From NCBI GenBank assembly GCA_011053005.1, contig DRHW01000032.1, positions 62,001-126,000 on the forward strand: a stretch of 64,000 bases of DNA, given 5' to 3'. Of the stretch, positions 53,681 to 58,886 are shown one piece after another. The notes under the pieces were generated by a model, which made no database searches, was not told the DNA's origin, and saw only the letters and a list, made by a program, of their open reading frames with translations. The stretch's first letter is position 1, and every line of letters starts with the position of its first letter. Source of the stretch: Methylophaga sp. GTDB taxonomy: Bacteria; Pseudomonadota; Gammaproteobacteria; Nitrosococcales; Methylophagaceae. Position numbers and translations under genes: made by a program.

Positions 53681-54265
53681 TTAAGCGATGATATTTTTAG
53701 CTTTACGACGAAAACCCATAAAACCTAATAATGCAGGTGCAAATAACAATGCCGCTGCTGGAATTGGCACTGCTGATACATTTGACGTCAGAATCTGAAA
53801 CTGTGCATCTGTTCCAGTGAAGTTGAAAGCACTGTCACCAGTATAATTAATATGGATGCTGTTATCTGCGAAAGAAAGATTAGCTAACAAGTTTAAACTA
53901 GTTAAATTTCCTGAAAGTAATGAGATCCCTGTAATGACTTCTCCAGCATTAAACACGATATTAGAAATCCATGCATCAAATGTATAAAAGTCCCAATCGT
54001 CCTGAGACTTTAACGTTAAAATATTTGTGGTTGAATCTAAATCCATATTCACAACACCGCCGTTCCAAGATGATGGGTTTTCGATAAAGTCGGAGTTTGT
54101 TAATTCATCGCCAGAGCCAACATTGACATTTAATGCTTCATAAACAAGAGCGCCACTACCTTGACCAGGAAGATCGCTCTCAGTTCTAAAATCGCCTTGA
54201 ATAATGGCTGCATTAGTTTGTGAAGCAGCAATTAATAAAACTAGAAAACCTAAGTATTTTTTCAT
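53681..54265 (-). CDS. PEP-CTERM-type exosortase substrate (VPIPAA variant)
   Basis: A 194-residue secreted protein: signal peptide 1-19 (MKKYLGFLVLLIAASQTNAA), a Ser/Asn-rich beta-type middle, and a C-terminal sorting signal SAVPIPAAALLFAPALLGF, hydrophobic helix, then a basic end FRRKAKNIIA. This VPxPAA form is the common gammaproteobacterial variant of PEP-CTERM, recognised by exosortase and linked to extracellular polysaccharide. No exosortase gene is in the window. The functional middle region is not recognised. Confidence 0.85.
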   Translation of the reverse strand: MKKYLGFLVLLIAASQTNAAIIQGDFRTESDLPGQGSGALVYEALNVNVGSGDELTNSDFIENPSSWNGGVVNMDLDSTTNILTLKSQDDWDFYTFDAWISNIVFNAGEVITGISLLSGNLTSLNLLANLSFADNSIHINYTGDSAFNFTGTDAQFQILTSNVSAVPIPAAALLFAPALLGFMGFRRKAKNIIA

Positions 54266-54858
54266 AACACGTTCCTCAATGAAAATTGCAACCCAGCTAT
54301 CTTTAAGTTGTGACCAAAGATCTGAAGTTTTCCGTGCTTGGCTTACACCAAGGTTGGCTTTATCTATAATTAAATTAAAAGACTGAAACTCAATCTAAAA
54401 TATAATATAAACAGTATGACGACTGCGATCTATTGTACTTTAGTACTAAAAGTTAATTAATTTGGCTATTGATCATTGAGTGCTTGTTTTTAGGTCTTTT
54501 ATAGCAAAAAATGATAACCATTCGGTTACAAACCAGTAGTTATAATTCAGACTAAAAGCAGAGGATGAAAGTTATGTGAGCCCTACGTTCTAACATAAAA
54601 AACGACAGAGCTATCCGAACCCTATAAAAGATGATGTTAACCTCGGCACTGGCCAGCTAAGGCAAAATCAGTATGAGAACTCAGTGCTCCGAGAAGCAGT
54701 CCGAATCTGCTTTCGGAAAAATTAGAAGCTTTGAAAGTTTAAACCAAAAACACTCGGAGTTCTGTCAATAACTCTACGCACTATTAAATTCATGCATAAA
54801 CAAATATATATGCTTTATACTAAATTTTTTACTTGTTCTGAATTTATAAGGGTACATT
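54266..54858. other. Long intergenic region, 593 bases, with hairpins
   Basis: Separates the PEP-CTERM gene from the ATPase-nuclease gene. The left part should hold the PEP-CTERM promoter. Small hairpin TAACC-ATTC-GGTTA at 54515-54528. The block 54540-54770 is less AT-rich and folds (listed separately). No open frame, tRNA, CRISPR repeat or transposase remnant was found. No ribosome site better than AAGGGTAC is seen before 54859. Confidence 0.6.
54675..54764. other. Potential structured RNA or regulatory element with alternative pairing
   Basis: CCGAGAAGCAG (54689-54699) can pair with CTGCTTTCGG (54707-54716), leaving one bulge and a 7-base loop. CTCCGAG (54687-54693) can instead pair with CTCGGAG (54753-54759), extended by GAAC/GTTC. 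The two pairings share CCGAG and exclude each other. Whether it is transcribed is unknown. Confidence 0.4.
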
Positions 54859-56919
54859 ATGAGAGGAAACCCTCTAGGTGATATTCGAGCTGAAAATGAC
54901 GAGGAAATGCTCGACAAGGCTTTTCTAGAAACGGCCGATTATAAAACTTTACTTGAAGCTTCTGATAGGAGTGTTGTTGTTGGGAGAAGAGGCACGGGTA
55001 AAAGCGCTCTAGTTCATCAACTTAAAAAATATTGGTTGAAACAACCTAAAACTTTTATTGTCTCGATTGCTCCCGAAGAGGATCAAATCATCGGGTTGCG
55101 TGGCTTATTTAGTTCTTTTGGTGATAACTTTATCCATATAAAAGCAGGTTCAAAAATTGCTTGGAAGTATGCCCTATATATGGAACTGATAATTCAAATT
55201 AAGAATCACTATAAACTTACAAAGTTTATTAATGATAATGTTGTTAATCCACATATATCTACATGGGGTAAGCCTAATCAGAATGTCGCAACAAAGATTC
55301 GAAACAAATTAAAGAGCGTTCTCAATTTAGAAGAGTCATCAGAATCTATTGTTGCAGACTTATCAAGTAATCTTCATTTAGATGAAATTGAAGAACAGCT
55401 TCTAAATGTCATTGATAATAGTAGTTTAAAATTTATCCTTCTTGTTGACAGGCTTGATGAAGGGTATTCCCCTGATAACTTAGGGGTTGCTATTGTAGAT
55501 GGGTTTGTTCAATCTGTAATTGATTTAAATAGTAAATTTCATAATAAGATTCGTGGCATAATCTTCCTTCGCGATAATATGTATCGCTCTATCACCATTA
55601 AAGATCCCGATTTTACAAGAAATATTGAGGGACAGGTTTTGAGGCTTCACTGGGATGAATATGGCTTATTTAATTTAGTCTGTAATCGTATCAGAATTGC
55701 CTATAATATTTCTCAAGAAAATAATAATAAATTGTGGTCGTCATGTACTGCTCGAGAACTTAAGGGGCGAGAAGGTTTCAGATTATGTCTAAAGTTAACA
55801 CTTTATCGGCCTAGAGATATATTAGTTCTACTGAACAATGCTTTTTTAAATGCTAGCTCACAGGGTAGGCAAGAAATAATATCAGAAGATATTGACGCAT
55901 CAGCCAAGTCTATATCTCAAAACCGGCTTTATGATCTTCATAAAGAATATGAAAGTATTTTCCCCGCACTACATGCCTTTACTTCGACATTTGTATCTTC
56001 CATACCTATATTATCAGTTATTCAGGCTAGTGAGTTTATTAATAAAGTCCTCTCTCATGATAATCATTCTCTCGAAGTTCAACGTGATTTAGCTATATTT
56101 GAAAACCCAATGCAAGTTCTTCAGCGCTTATATGGAGTTGGTTTTATTGGTATTGAAAACTCTACAACAGGAACTTTTGTTTTTTGTCATGATGGTAGAG
56201 ATCCATCAACAGAAGTATCGGAGCACTCAAAACTTTTTATTCACCCATGTTATTGGTTAGCTCTCAATATATCTCAAGACTTTTTGGAAATCGAACAAGC
56301 GGAAGAAATTTATGATGAGTACGATATTGAAATTAGCTCCATAAGCGTTGAGCAGCGTCAAGCACGTCTTGGCAAACTGATTGAAGAAGTTAAAGTCATA
56401 AAGCCTGGAAGAGAAGACTGTCACGAATTTGAAAAATGGTGTTTAGATGCAATCCGTCTTATTTTTGCTGGTACATTATCCAACATTGAGCTTCACTCTA
56501 ATAAAAATGGACTTCAACAAAGAGATATTATCGCAACAAATGTCTCGCTTGTGCCTGTTTGGAAAAGATTAATTGAAGACTATAAATGTCGGCAAGTTGT
56601 TTTCGAAATCAAAAATTATGCTCAACTTAAATCTGATGACTACAGGCAAATGAATTCATACTTATCTAATGACCATGGGACTATTGGCTTCATTATTTGT
56701 CGTAGTGATAATAATAACCTAGAAAAAGGTAAAGAACTAAATTGGGCCCAGGAACTTTATTTTCAGCATAAGAAAATTGTTGTCAAGCTCTCTGAAAAAT
56801 ATCTTCTTAAACATTTATCTAAACAGAGAAGCCCGCAAAAGCATGATGCAGCTAATATTGAATTAAACAAATTAGTGGACACATATCTACGTCAATATCT
56901 TATAGTTAAGTCAGGGTAA
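54859..56919 (+). CDS. P-loop ATPase (Sll1717/STAND-like) with C-terminal PD-(D/E)XK-like nuclease domain
   Basis: A 686-residue cytosolic protein. Walker A GRRGTGKS at 42-49, Walker B FILLVDRLDE at 192-201, a sensor-like strand IRGIIFLRDNMYRS (231-244), and YRPRDILVLLNNAF (316-329), an arrangement I recognise from the Sll1717-type P-loop ATPases related to STAND NTPases. Residues 360-445 look like a winged helix. Residues 515-645 fit a restriction-endonuclease fold: acidic HEFEKW (522-527), Asp in QQRDIIAT (556), EIK in VFEIKNYAQL (583-585) and Gln in DYRQMNSYL (597), i.e. E-D-ExK-Q. An ATP-gated nuclease acting in phage or plasmid defence is inferred. It stands alone beside the 3' end of a tRNA and looks more AT-rich than its neighbours. 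Alternatively the C-terminal domain may only bind DNA. Confidence 0.85.
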   Translation: MRGNPLGDIRAENDEEMLDKAFLETADYKTLLEASDRSVVVGRRGTGKSALVHQLKKYWLKQPKTFIVSIAPEEDQIIGLRGLFSSFGDNFIHIKAGSKIAWKYALYMELIIQIKNHYKLTKFINDNVVNPHISTWGKPNQNVATKIRNKLKSVLNLEESSESIVADLSSNLHLDEIEEQLLNVIDNSSLKFILLVDRLDEGYSPDNLGVAIVDGFVQSVIDLNSKFHNKIRGIIFLRDNMYRSITIKDPDFTRNIEGQVLRLHWDEYGLFNLVCNRIRIAYNISQENNNKLWSSCTARELKGREGFRLCLKLTLYRPRDILVLLNNAFLNASSQGRQEIISEDIDASAKSISQNRLYDLHKEYESIFPALHAFTSTFVSSIPILSVIQASEFINKVLSHDNHSLEVQRDLAIFENPMQVLQRLYGVGFIGIENSTTGTFVFCHDGRDPSTEVSEHSKLFIHPCYWLALNISQDFLEIEQAEEIYDEYDIEISSISVEQRQARLGKLIEEVKVIKPGREDCHEFEKWCLDAIRLIFAGTLSNIELHSNKNGLQQRDIIATNVSLVPVWKRLIEDYKCRQVVFEIKNYAQLKSDDYRQMNSYLSNDHGTIGFIICRSDNNNLEKGKELNWAQELYFQHKKIVVKLSEKYLLKHLSKQRSPQKHDAANIELNKLVDTYLRQYLIVKSG

Positions 56920-56960
56920 ATTTTTTGTTGGGGCTGCTCCATAGCGTCTACATGAGATAA

Positions 56961-57001
56961 AAATAAAAAAGCCTCAACACTAAAACTAGTGCTGAGGCTT
57001 T
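56961..57001 (-). terminator. Terminator of the rpoD-tRNA transcript
   Basis: AAAGCCTCA-A-CACTA and TAGTG-C-TGAGGCTTT form a long stem with a short loop; on the minus strand it continues into TTTTTTATTTTTAT. It lies 8 bases past the tRNA 3' end. It may also stop the convergent ATPase gene, whose plus-strand T-tail is weaker. Confidence 0.93.
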
Positions 57002-57009
57002 GATATATA

Positions 57010-57086
57010 TGGTGGGCCCACAGGGACTTGAACCCCGGACAAAGGGATTATGAGTCCCCTGCTCTAACCAACTGAGCTATAGGCCC
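57010..57086 (-). tRNA. tRNA-Ile2 (anticodon CAT, AUA-decoding), or less likely tRNA-Met
   Basis: A 77-base cloverleaf with encoded CCA. Acceptor GGGCCTA/TGGGCCC, D arm GCTC-N9-GAGC, anticodon loop CTCATAA, T arm CGGGG-TTCAAGT-CCCTG. CAT anticodon fits either elongator Met or Ile2. C4-G69 and C5-G68 pairs are recalled determinants for TilS, and the anticodon context GACTCATAATC equals E. coli ileX, which also lies near rpoD. Hence Ile2 is preferred; C34 would be changed to lysidine. Only 6 bases separate it from the rpoD stop codon. Confidence 0.9.
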
Positions 57087-57092
57087 GATATT

Positions 57093-58886
57093 TTAGTTAT
57101 CGGTATCTAAGAAGCTTCGTAATTGATCCGAACGGGTCGGATGACGAAGTTTACGTAGTGCTTTTGCTTCGATTTGACGTATACGTTCACGTGTTACGTC
57201 AAACTGTTTACCTACTTCTTCTAAGGTATGGTCAGTGTTCATGTCGATACCAAAACGCATACGCAATACTTTTGCTTCACGTTCTGTAAGACCACTTAAT
57301 ATGCCTTGTGTTGCTTCTCTTAGGCCTTCAATCATGGCCGAATCTTGTGGAGACATTACGTTGGTGTCTTCAACAAAGTCACCTAAATGTGAATCTTCGT
57401 CGTCACCAATGGGTGTTTCCATTGAAATAGGCTCTTTCGAAATTTTAAGTACTTTACGTACTTTATCTTCCGGCATATCTACGCGTTCAGCCAACTCTTG
57501 TGGGGTTGGTTCACGGCCCATTTCTTGTAACATTTGACGTGCAATTCGATTCAGTTTGTTGATCGTTTCGATCATGTGTACTGGAATACGAATAGTACGG
57601 GCTTGGTCAGCAATTGAACGTGTGATTGCTTGGCGGATCCACCATGTAGCGTAGGTAGAAAATTTGTAACCACGTTGATATTCAAACTTATCAACTGCCT
57701 TCATCAAGCCGATATTACCTTCTTGAATTAGGTCTAAGAACTGTAAACCGCGGTTAGTATATTTTTTCGCAATCGAGATGACAAGTCGTAAATTCGCTTC
57801 GACCATTTCTTTTTTAGCACGACGTGCTTTTGCTTCAGAAATAGTCATTTGACGGCTGATTTCTTTGATCTCTGGAATTTCCATTCCACGATCGGAAGAT
57901 ACTTCAGCTAATTTTGTTTGCGCATTGATGATTTGATCAAGATTTTTCTTAATCGTTGAAGAGTAATGTTTTTTGGCACGGATATGTTTATCTGTCCATT
58001 CAAGGTTGGTTTCATTACCCATGAATGATTCGATAAAATCACGGCGTTCCATTCTTGCTTCATCAACAATGATTTTGCTAATGGTGCGTTCTTGTTTACG
58101 AATGATCGCAACAGTGTCACGCATTAAGCCATTAAGAAGATTCAATGTTTTTGGCGTGAGTTTGAATTCCATAAATAGCTCAGTAACAAGCGTATTTGCA
58201 GCTTCAAGTTCATCTTCTGATGCTTTTTCTGCTTGGTTTACTGCCGCGCGAAGTGCTGTGAAGTGTTCTTTTGCTTCTTCAGGATCAACACCAACAGCTG
58301 ATTCGTCATCATCATCGTCATCTGCACCTTCTTTTGCAGGTGGGCCTGCAACAACAGGTTCAGCATCAGGATCTTCAGGCAGAATAAAACCTTTAATCAC
58401 TTCATTCAGACGCATTTCGCCGGCTTCTACTGCTTCGTATAAGCTTAGGAATTTGCTGATGCAAGGCGGATAAGTCGTGAGCATTAATAGACTTTCGCGA
58501 AGACCGGCTTCAATGCGTTTTGCAATGACAATTTCGCCTTCACGGGTCAATAATTCAACCGAGCCCATTTCACGCATGTACATACGTACTGGATCCGTTG
58601 TGCGACCGAATTCACCATCTGAGCTAGATAATACAGCGGCGGCTTCGTCAGCAGAAACATCATCATTGTTACTTGCTGCTTCAGCTAAGCGTTCCATCTC
58701 ATCGGTATCCATGCCATCTTCATGGACCATAATACCGAGATCACTGAACATGCCGATGATGTCTTCGATTTGATCTGCGTCAACCAAGTTTTCAGGTAAG
58801 TGATCGTTTATCTCACCATAAGTGAGGTAGCCGCGTTCTTTCCCAAGTGTGATTAGCGCTTTAATTCGTGACTGTTGATCTTTCAT
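57093..58886 (-). CDS. rpoD: Primary sigma factor RpoD (sigma-70)
   Basis: A 597-residue housekeeping sigma factor. Region 1.1 at the start ([31 protein letters not shown], read as [15 protein letters not shown]), region 1.2 [22 protein letters not shown], an acidic non-conserved region (about 170-205), region 2 [27 protein letters not shown] and [20 protein letters not shown], region 3 [14 protein letters not shown], region 4 [15 protein letters not shown] and [19 protein letters not shown]. Part of the conserved rpsU-yqeY-dnaG-rpoD block. The stop codon is followed after 6 bases by a tRNA. Confidence 0.98.

What the first reader, a model, noticed from the sequence alone, without database searches (positions are those of the whole stretch)
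54859..56919. Solitary ATPase fused to a PD-(D/E)XK-like nuclease: candidate single-gene defence system
The protein joins a Sll1717/STAND-like P-loop NTPase (Walker A 42-49, Walker B 192-201), a probable winged helix and a C-terminal region with E-D-ExK-Q order (523/525, 556, 583-585, 597) as in restriction-endonuclease-fold nucleases. Architecture of NTP-controlled nuclease, lone position beside a tRNA 3' end, a long non-coding leader and AT-rich look all suggest a horizontally acquired defence gene. The domain reading is from motifs only; defence function is inference. I do not recall this exact fusion being described as a system.
Basis: partly seen in the sequence, partly recalled or inferred. 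Interest (0 to 1): 0.72.

Follow-up and report, generated by a model that had tools for sequence, protein, structure and literature searches.

The report
Mobile ATPase-nuclease, probable phage defence gene
A lone bacterial gene that joins an ATP-driven switch to a DNA-cutting domain sits next to a tRNA gene behind a phage remnant; its relatives ride on phages, plasmids and a transposon present in deposited E. coli lab strains, so it is probably a little-studied weapon against phages that could be tested directly.

Summary
ORF 54859-56919 (686 aa) is an Sll1717-family P-loop ATPase (277 bits, cut-off 75) fused to a C-terminal PD-(D/E)XK nuclease. That domain, folded alone, gives pLDDT 86.7 and pTM 0.85 and aligns best with FokI and BspD6I (Z 10.1-10.6). 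E525, D556, [E/D]583-x-K585 and Q597 are kept in 11 of 11 rows. Three relative pairs show dN/dS of 0.01-0.03.

The 'non-coding leader' holds a broken fragment of a P2-type phage gpA gene. Behind gpA lies the defence slot of P2-like phages (PMC9122126). Two sister species have a retron or a Shedu-like gene at this tRNA locus. Full-length relatives sit beside the P2 portal gene, in a variable slot of Klebsiella phage-plasmids, next to Gabija, and inside Tn1000, whose tnpX is a 44%-identical member in deposited DH5alpha and XL1-Blue chromosomes.

Most likely it is an NTP-controlled nuclease for phage or element exclusion. Architecture and mobility are shown; trigger, substrate and defence are inferred. 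I found no phage test of this fusion. The modules are known; the family is not a named system that I found.

The parts
54859..56919 (+). ATPase-nuclease gene, 686 aa
54859..56271 (+). AAA+-like P-loop ATPase (Sll1717 family, NF047389) with probable winged-helix tail, residues 1-471
   Evidence: NF047389 residues 6-469, 277 bits; structural alignment of residues 1-471 to Cdc6 (Z 11.1, rmsd 8.9) and of the core to RdrA and BrxC; low-confidence model
54982..55005 (+). Walker A, residues 42-49 (K48)
   Evidence: invariant in alignment A1
55432..55461 (+). Walker B, residues 192-201 (D197, D200, E201)
   Evidence: D197, D200 and E201 invariant in alignment A1
56329..56916 (+). PD-(D/E)XK nuclease domain, residues 491-686
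   Evidence: AlphaFold2 pLDDT 86.7, pTM 0.85; FokI/BspD6I-type match; PADLOC PDC-M36A E 4.4e-14 over residues 492-650
56431..56433 (+). E525, conserved acid on a core helix
   Evidence: 11 of 11 rows
56524..56526 (+). D556, predicted metal ligand
   Evidence: 11 of 11 rows
56605..56613 (+). E583-x-K585 motif
   Evidence: E in 10 and D in 1 of 11 rows, K in 11 of 11
56647..56649 (+). Q597 on the helix after the ExK strand
   Evidence: 11 of 11 rows
54627..54779 (+). broken fragment of the C-terminal half of a P2-type replication gene A (gpA, phrog_91)
   Evidence: parts 88-91% identical in DNA to loci in G027 and in own contig C36; open-frame relatives L074, L075 and L076 match phrog_91, profile positions 517-625 of 852; two reading frames needed in the window
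57010..57086 (-). tRNA-Met (CAT), presumed integration site
   Evidence: second copies of its 3' part with flank in three sister loci
56968..57001 (-). 15-pair terminator-like hairpin between the gene and the tRNA

Best explanation
The gene encodes a single-protein, NTP-controlled DNA nuclease carried by mobile elements to exclude competing phages or other invading DNA. It most likely reached this genome as cargo of a P2-type prophage or a related element inserted at the rpoD-proximal tRNA-Met; the rest of the element decayed and left a fragment of gpA in front of the gene. Proposed action: the AAA+-like N-terminal module binds ATP and probably oligomerises; an unknown infection signal changes its state and activates or brings together the FokI-like PD-(D/E)XK domains, which cut DNA. 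Shown: architecture, intact active-site residues, strong purifying selection in relatives, mobile and defence-slot contexts of relatives, gpA fragment. Inferred: DNA as substrate, the trigger, the route of arrival, and anti-phage function.
For: Domain identity. Intact motifs. dN/dS 0.027, 0.027 and 0.010 in three unsaturated pairs of relatives, nuclease part 0.034, 0.035 and 0.007 (two further pairs, one with the window gene, were saturated). Relatives: beside a P2-type portal gene gpQ in L094, L096, L101 and L103 (portal tested in L096 and L103), with a gpA fragment upstream in L096; next to GajA/GajB and an annotated ABC-three-component system on a Vibrio alginolyticus plasmid with tail sheath and tail tube genes; in a variable slot of Klebsiella IncFIB phage-plasmids where plasmid p2 of Kp1604 has type I restriction-modification instead. 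The stretch between gpA and gpQ is a published defence hotspot (PMC9122126 section 10). gpA-type fragments in this genus lie beside a retron III-A, a Shedu-like gene, a type IIG enzyme and a SIR2 protein. One branch of the ATPase family is named anti-phage in NCBIfam: a protein over the DS41_1 cut-off also passes NF047389.
Against: No phage assay of this exact fusion was found (searches; none is exhaustive). Phage restriction by plasmid p2 of Kp1604 cannot be credited to it: p2 lacks the gene. PADLOC has no full-length match; only the nuclease part matches a candidate family. No P2 prophage remains here: gpQ is missing, no att repeat was found in the window, and the gpA fragment and its open-frame relatives cover only profile positions 517-625 of 852, so the last quarter of gpA next to the slot is not seen. 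At 4 of 11 places with gpA-type DNA I saw no defence gene. The N-terminal model is weak (mean pLDDT 57.9). Foldseek alone gives the nuclease domain no hit under E 1e-3 (best 4.7e-3, EcoT38I). The L094 gene has no DNA match in complete E. coli genomes.
Confidence: 0.7

Rival explanations
1. It serves the mobile elements themselves: an accessory for transposition, replication or stability (for example immunity, resolution or target selection, by analogy with TnsC/MuB ATPases), not defence.
For: TnsC and MuB are in the structural list for the ATPase part (low-confidence model); the E. coli member is inside a Tn3-family transposon next to its resolvase gene, between inverted repeats of about 35 bp.
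Against: The same full-length protein occurs on unlike elements (P2-like phage contigs, Klebsiella phage-plasmids, a chromosomal island, a Tn3 element), in one of them in a slot where another copy of the element carries restriction-modification, which a shared transposition role does not explain.
Confidence: 0.15
2. A toxin-like addiction or abortive nuclease that attacks host nucleic acid when its element is lost or overridden, protecting the element and not the cell.
For: Nuclease with a regulatory ATPase on plasmids and phages; PrrC-type second-line logic is known (PMC9122126 passage).
Against: By eye no antitoxin-like partner gene is constant beside it in the loci read; at the window locus it stands alone and has outlived most of its element.
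Confidence: 0.1
3. A relic or host gene without a defence role in this organism.
For: The adjoining phage sequence is broken; constraint was measured in relatives, since the pair with the window gene was saturated at synonymous sites.
Against: The ORF and all tested motifs are intact; no match in the other 28 genomes of the genus, so it is not a conserved host gene.
Confidence: 0.05

Closest known systems
Tn1000 (gamma-delta) tnpX, WP_000422420.1
   Same: Same full-length architecture, 44% identity over the length of the window protein, all tested motifs kept with D at 583
   Different: Lies inside a Tn3-family transposon of about 5.98 kb with inverted repeats of about 35 bp; no such repeat in the window
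NCBIfam NF053860, DS41_1_antiphage
   Same: The ATPase belongs to the same wider Sll1717 family: a protein over the DS41_1 cut-off scores 112.6 bits with NF047389
   Different: The window protein scores 48.4 bits against a cut-off of 370. That the model stands for DS-41 of PMC13092281 is inferred from its name
PADLOC PDC-M36A (candidate defence family)
   Same: Shares the C-terminal nuclease domain (A5)
   Different: Other members have another N-terminal half: L028 and L075 match PDC-M36A, L119, L126, L127 and L129 by similarity to these or to the domain; the one tested, L028, has no Sll1717 match
Shedu, Avs4, Old/GajA and other ATPase- or nuclease-based defences
   Same: Shedu and Avs4 nuclease domains appear in the structural list (Z 7.6 and 6.4); Old and GajA also join an ATPase to a nuclease
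   Different: Old and GajA use a Toprim nuclease (PMC9122126 passage); the ATPase family here is another one
RADAR RdrA and BREX BrxC
   Same: AAA+ cores in the structural list (Z 10.7 and 10.0, low-confidence model)
   Different: Parts of multi-gene systems (recall); no partner gene stands beside the window gene

Membership tests
Sll1717 P-loop ATPase (NCBIfam NF047389) | Score above the curated cut-off of 75 bits | tested here: met
   277 bits, residues 6-469
PD-(D/E)XK nuclease superfamily | alpha-beta core with D and [E/D]xK on neighbouring strands | tested here: met
   Predicted H28-45 (E525), E50-56, E66-71 (D556), H76-85, E89-94 (E583; K585 just behind), H102-111 (Q597), E119-124; FokI/BspD6I Z 10.1-10.6; motifs 11 of 11
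PD-(D/E)XK nuclease superfamily | Metal-dependent cleavage of nucleic acid | not testable with these tools
   needs purified protein
DS41_1 antiphage protein (NF053860) | Score above 370 bits | tested here: not met
   48.4 bits
PADLOC PDC-M36A | Match over the whole 457- or 330-position model | tested here: not met
   Only profile positions 274-427 of 457 and 159-313 of 330 matched
STAND NTPase | nSTAND model score above its cut-off, or a STAND-specific fold | tested here: inconclusive
   nSTAND1 11.9 bits against cut-off 27.1; NB-ARC chains listed at Z 8.4 below Cdc6, RdrA and BrxC, on a low-confidence model
P2-like phage defence-slot cargo (between gpA and gpQ) | gpA on one side | tested here: met
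   gpA fragment 54627-54779, same strand, upstream; the end of gpA itself is not seen
P2-like phage defence-slot cargo (between gpA and gpQ) | gpQ on the other side | tested here: not met
   tRNA-Met and rpoD follow in the window; met in relatives L096 and L103
Tn1000 passenger gene tnpX | Inside a Tn1000-type Tn3 element | tested here: not met
   No terminal repeat with up to 3 mismatches in the window; met in L006, L140 and L141
Anti-phage defence system | Reduced phage propagation when expressed | not testable with these tools
   bench test needed

The most novel reading that the evidence does not exclude
A distinct, so far unnamed family of one-gene ATPase-nuclease exclusion systems is shared among P2-like phages, Klebsiella phage-plasmids, chromosomal islands and the classical transposon Tn1000; the orphan tnpX gene of Tn1000, present in deposited DH5alpha and XL1-Blue chromosomes, would then be an active anti-phage nuclease that laboratories have carried unawares.
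Probability: 0.5. Interest if true: 0.75.

Novelty: new variant of a known kind. Interest (0 to 1): 0.6.

Why it matters
It ties an unexplained gene of a classical transposon, a phage defence slot and a phage-plasmid variable slot to one protein family with a clear catalytic prediction. An E. coli copy sits in deposited cloning-strain chromosomes (126 of 5426 complete E. coli genomes have a DNA match, 115 of them over at least 80% of the gene), so the idea can be tested at once, and if true it would matter for phage work done in such strains. The window also shows a prophage that has all but vanished at a tRNA site while its probable defence cargo stayed intact.

Tried and rejected
Phage-plasmid phenotype: deletion of p2 from Kp1604 raises plating of three lytic phages (PMC8969562 section 20). 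I hoped that p2 carries the gene; tblastn against four pieces that together cover the record finds nothing at E 1e-3, and the same slot holds type I restriction-modification and a DUF262 gene. The phenotype is therefore not evidence for this gene.

att repeats in the window: none found (whole window, short-word blastn of 56951-57095). RNA family in the leader: Rfam lists nothing within 54400-54858 at E up to 1; the stretch 54400-54626 stays unexplained. Promoters: 12 sigma-70-like sites against 11.4 expected, uninformative. No Pfam model reaches its cut-off for the protein. PDB sequence search: no relevant match. The viral scan with L028 found no relative. The ORF beside the DS41_1-type gene in L130 has no NCBIfam match. 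Folds not seen in the VIA-align lists are not excluded.

The first structural model (full length, 13 closely related rows) was poor for the nuclease; the second, nuclease alone with 11 more diverse rows (two of them nearly identical, one a fragment), was good.

Rows dropped: of the DNA matches, short ones at query 30-64 (G012, G016, G032) were not counted as gpA. Wide stretches past rpoD were fetched for 15 of the 28 other same-genus genomes; the rest were not read. L088 ends 141 bases past rpoD and was not judged for content.

Mended after a check against the calls: gpA is called a fragment, not a 3' end (profile positions 517-625 of 852), and my odds for arrival by a P2-type element went from 0.8 to 0.75 for that reason; G006 is no longer counted as an att copy, since its match covers the flank and only about six bases of the tRNA.

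Full report
The gene. Window 54859-56919 (+) is an intact 686-residue ORF. NCBIfam places residues 6-469 in the Sll1717 P-loop ATPase subfamily at 277 bits, cut-off 75. PHROGs puts residues 1-472 in phrog_13260 and 502-678 in phrog_31260, both of unknown function. PADLOC matches residues 492-650 to the candidate defence family PDC-M36A, E 4.4e-14. No Pfam family reaches its cut-off.

The nuclease. Alignment A5 has 11 rows: 6 of the same fusion (two nearly identical), 1 distant fusion (L125) and 4 PDC-M36A-like (one a fragment). E525, D556, K585, N586 and Q597 are kept in 11 of 11; 583 is E in 10 and D in 1; 523 varies. AlphaFold2 on A5 gives mean pLDDT 86.7 and pTM 0.85 with the alpha-beta order of a PD-(D/E)XK core. 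VIA-align 2, a second look at Foldseek's own list, ranks BspD6I and FokI at Z 10.1-10.6 (rmsd 3.4-4.8 over 152-168 residues), LlaBIII 9.2, EcoT38I 8.7, MspJI 8.2, Shedu 7.6, HindIII 7.2 and Avs4 6.4; the first entry that is not a nuclease is an RNA polymerase subunit at 6.5. Foldseek alone has nothing under E 1e-3; its first hit is EcoT38I at 4.7e-3.

The ATPase. The full-length model is weak (mean pLDDT 57.9; ten-residue means 65-93 from 31 to 250; under 50 in 265-363, 463-501, 531-626 and 636-686). On it, Cdc6 (Z 11.1, rmsd 8.9 over 319 residues, range 1-471), RdrA (10.7), BrxC (10.0) and TnsC (9.6) lead; plant NB-ARC chains appear at 8.4. I read this as an AAA+-like module, perhaps nearest ORC/Cdc6 with a winged helix; a STAND assignment is not settled. 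Elsewhere the same ATPase family has other partners: in L024, L025 and L026 it follows an N-terminal half that looks by eye like a TIR or nucleoside-deoxyribosyltransferase domain (the L024 ATPase tested). A protein over the cut-off of NF053860, 'DS41_1_antiphage', also passes NF047389 (112.6 bits). I infer from the name that this is DS-41 of the DefensePredictor paper (PMC13092281; passages and figure legends seen), which counts DS-41 among its validated systems. The window protein itself is not DS41_1 (48.4 against 370 bits).

How it came here. 0 of the other 28 same-genus genomes searched hold a match (several are incomplete). In two wider draws 6 of 369 (E 1e-3) and 9 of 398 (E 1e-6) genomes have any match, own genome included, and only the own genome and G465 match over both domains. 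The ORF has the lowest GC of the 31 long ORFs of the window. The leader contains a fragment of a P2-type replication gene A: 54648-54695 is 90% identical to G027 and to contig C36 of the own genome, 54702-54779 is 88% identical to G027, and 54712-54778 is 91% identical to C36. Relatives with an open frame, in L074, L075 and L076, match phrog_91 'nicking at origin of replication' (E 8.9e-14, 1.6e-14 and 1.2e-20) at profile positions 517-625 of 852, so they are fragments too. In the window the fragment needs two frames and reaches the stop that L075 has. In P2-like phages the stretch between gpA and the portal gene gpQ is a defence hotspot that holds old and tin in P2 (PMC9122126, section 10 read whole).

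The same locus in sister species. I fetched wide stretches past rpoD for 15 of the 28 other genomes. All 15 have tRNA-Met after rpoD; what follows mostly differs, though L087 and L089 share one gene a few kb apart in position, and L088 ends too early to judge. None of the 15 has the gene or four window neighbours tested (tblastn of five window proteins). In G027 the slot between this tRNA and a gpA fragment holds a retron III-A (RT and PRTase); in G013 a Shedu-like SduA protein lies between the tRNA and a short gpA-type match (28 bases, E 1.5e-4). Second direct copies of the tRNA 3' part with its flank occur about 9.3 kb (G027, 79%), 5.7 kb (G013, 85%) and 2.2 kb (G015, 84%) away, as expected of integration there; in G006 only the flank recurs.

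gpA-type matches lie at 11 places in 6 genomes. Beside 7 of them I found PADLOC-named genes: the window gene by its nuclease domain, SIR2 in own contig C36, the retron in G027:C13, SoFic about 1.2 kb off in G027:C14, a type IIG enzyme in G015:C33, SduA in G013:C24 and a type II methyltransferase in G007:C2. At the other 4 (three in G019, one in G013:C18) I saw none by eye and ran no PADLOC; the three in G019 are on short contigs. The matches at G013:C24, G007:C2 and G019:C139 are short and weak, and only L074, L075 and L076 were tested against phrog_91.

Relatives on mobile elements. Viral contigs gave 11 relatives. In L094 and L096 (59% identity) the gene lies tail to tail with a P2-type portal gene 30 bases away; in L101 and L103 (44%) a portal gene follows behind one small gene. 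Portal identity was tested for L096 and L103, and a gpA fragment upstream for L096; the other two are by eye. In plasmids 467 records match at E 1e-3, 198 with at least 80% coverage. Vibrio alginolyticus (59.5%) has it between tail genes and a Fic protein on one side and GajA/GajB and an ABC-three-component system on the other. Klebsiella IncFIB elements of about 110 kb (55.6%), two of them deposited as phages, carry it; in the one compared, the flanks match plasmid p2 of Kp1604, which has type I restriction-modification in that slot. p2 restricts phages (PMC8969562; abstract, sections 17, 18, 20 and passages seen) but lacks this gene, so that phenotype is no evidence for it. Vibrio sp. J1-1 has it in an island with integrase-like ORFs (by eye). 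The distant fusion in L125 lies in a viral contig and that in G465 near an IS110-like transposase (by eye).

Tn1000. The E. coli member WP_000422420.1 lies after the transposase and resolvase genes of a Tn3-family element with inverted repeats of about 35 bp, about 5.98 kb long, 99.97% identical between L140 and both L006 and L141. PMC6340991 (passages seen) names the gene tnpX of Tn1000; the link to the record here is the same protein in plasmid p5Y of duck strain 5Y, which I take from the strain name to be the strain of that paper. The gene is in the deposited chromosomes of DH5alpha and XL1-Blue; 126 of 5426 complete E. coli genomes have a match, 115 over at least 80% of the gene (131 places, 73 on chromosomes). 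Two papers in the library hold both 'tnpX' and 'Tn1000' (listing), and none of the 12 papers listed holds 'Tn1000'; this does not prove absence from print. 'Sll1717' gives no paper.

Selection. Nei-Gojobori dN/dS is 0.027 (L003/L004), 0.027 (L006/L008) and 0.010 (L101/L103); the nuclease part gives 0.034, 0.035 and 0.007. Two of the five pairs, L005/L007 and window/L096, were saturated at synonymous sites. In the relatives both halves are under constraint.

Judgement (mine). Architecture: about 0.95. Arrival by a P2-type element: about 0.75. Defence or exclusion function: about 0.7. The kind (nucleotide-controlled nuclease on a phage) is known; this pairing is a new variant, with a named but unexplained member in Tn1000.

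Noticed in passing
54283-54367 (-), ahead of ORF 53681-54265 (-): c-di-GMP-I-GGC riboswitch-like RNA (51.9 bits, gathering score 59, E 1.7e-10) upstream of an ORF that ends in a PEP-CTERM-like tail (by eye); similar DNA recurs at 7 other places in the genome (these were not tested with Rfam).
   Followed up: no
L023:2586-3593 (own genome, contig C36): A SIR2-domain protein matching SIR2 proteins paired with short Argonautes (PADLOC E 7.5e-135, profile positions 1-319 of 558) follows a gpA-type fragment behind tmRNA.
   Followed up: partly
L075:9141-10586 (G027, contig C14): A PDC-M36A protein with another N-terminal half lies in an island behind tmRNA in a sister species, with a SoFic-like gene.
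   Followed up: partly
L117:5239-6891: An Sll1717 ATPase of 550 aa without the nuclease lies about 4.7 kb from a gpA start in G761, with phage repressor-like ORFs between (by eye).
   Followed up: no
L085 and L090: Two sister rpoD loci carry a second tRNA-Met gene on the other strand 1.4-2.3 kb away.
   Followed up: no
54400-54626: Stretch between the riboswitch-like RNA and the gpA fragment with no recognised content.
   Followed up: no
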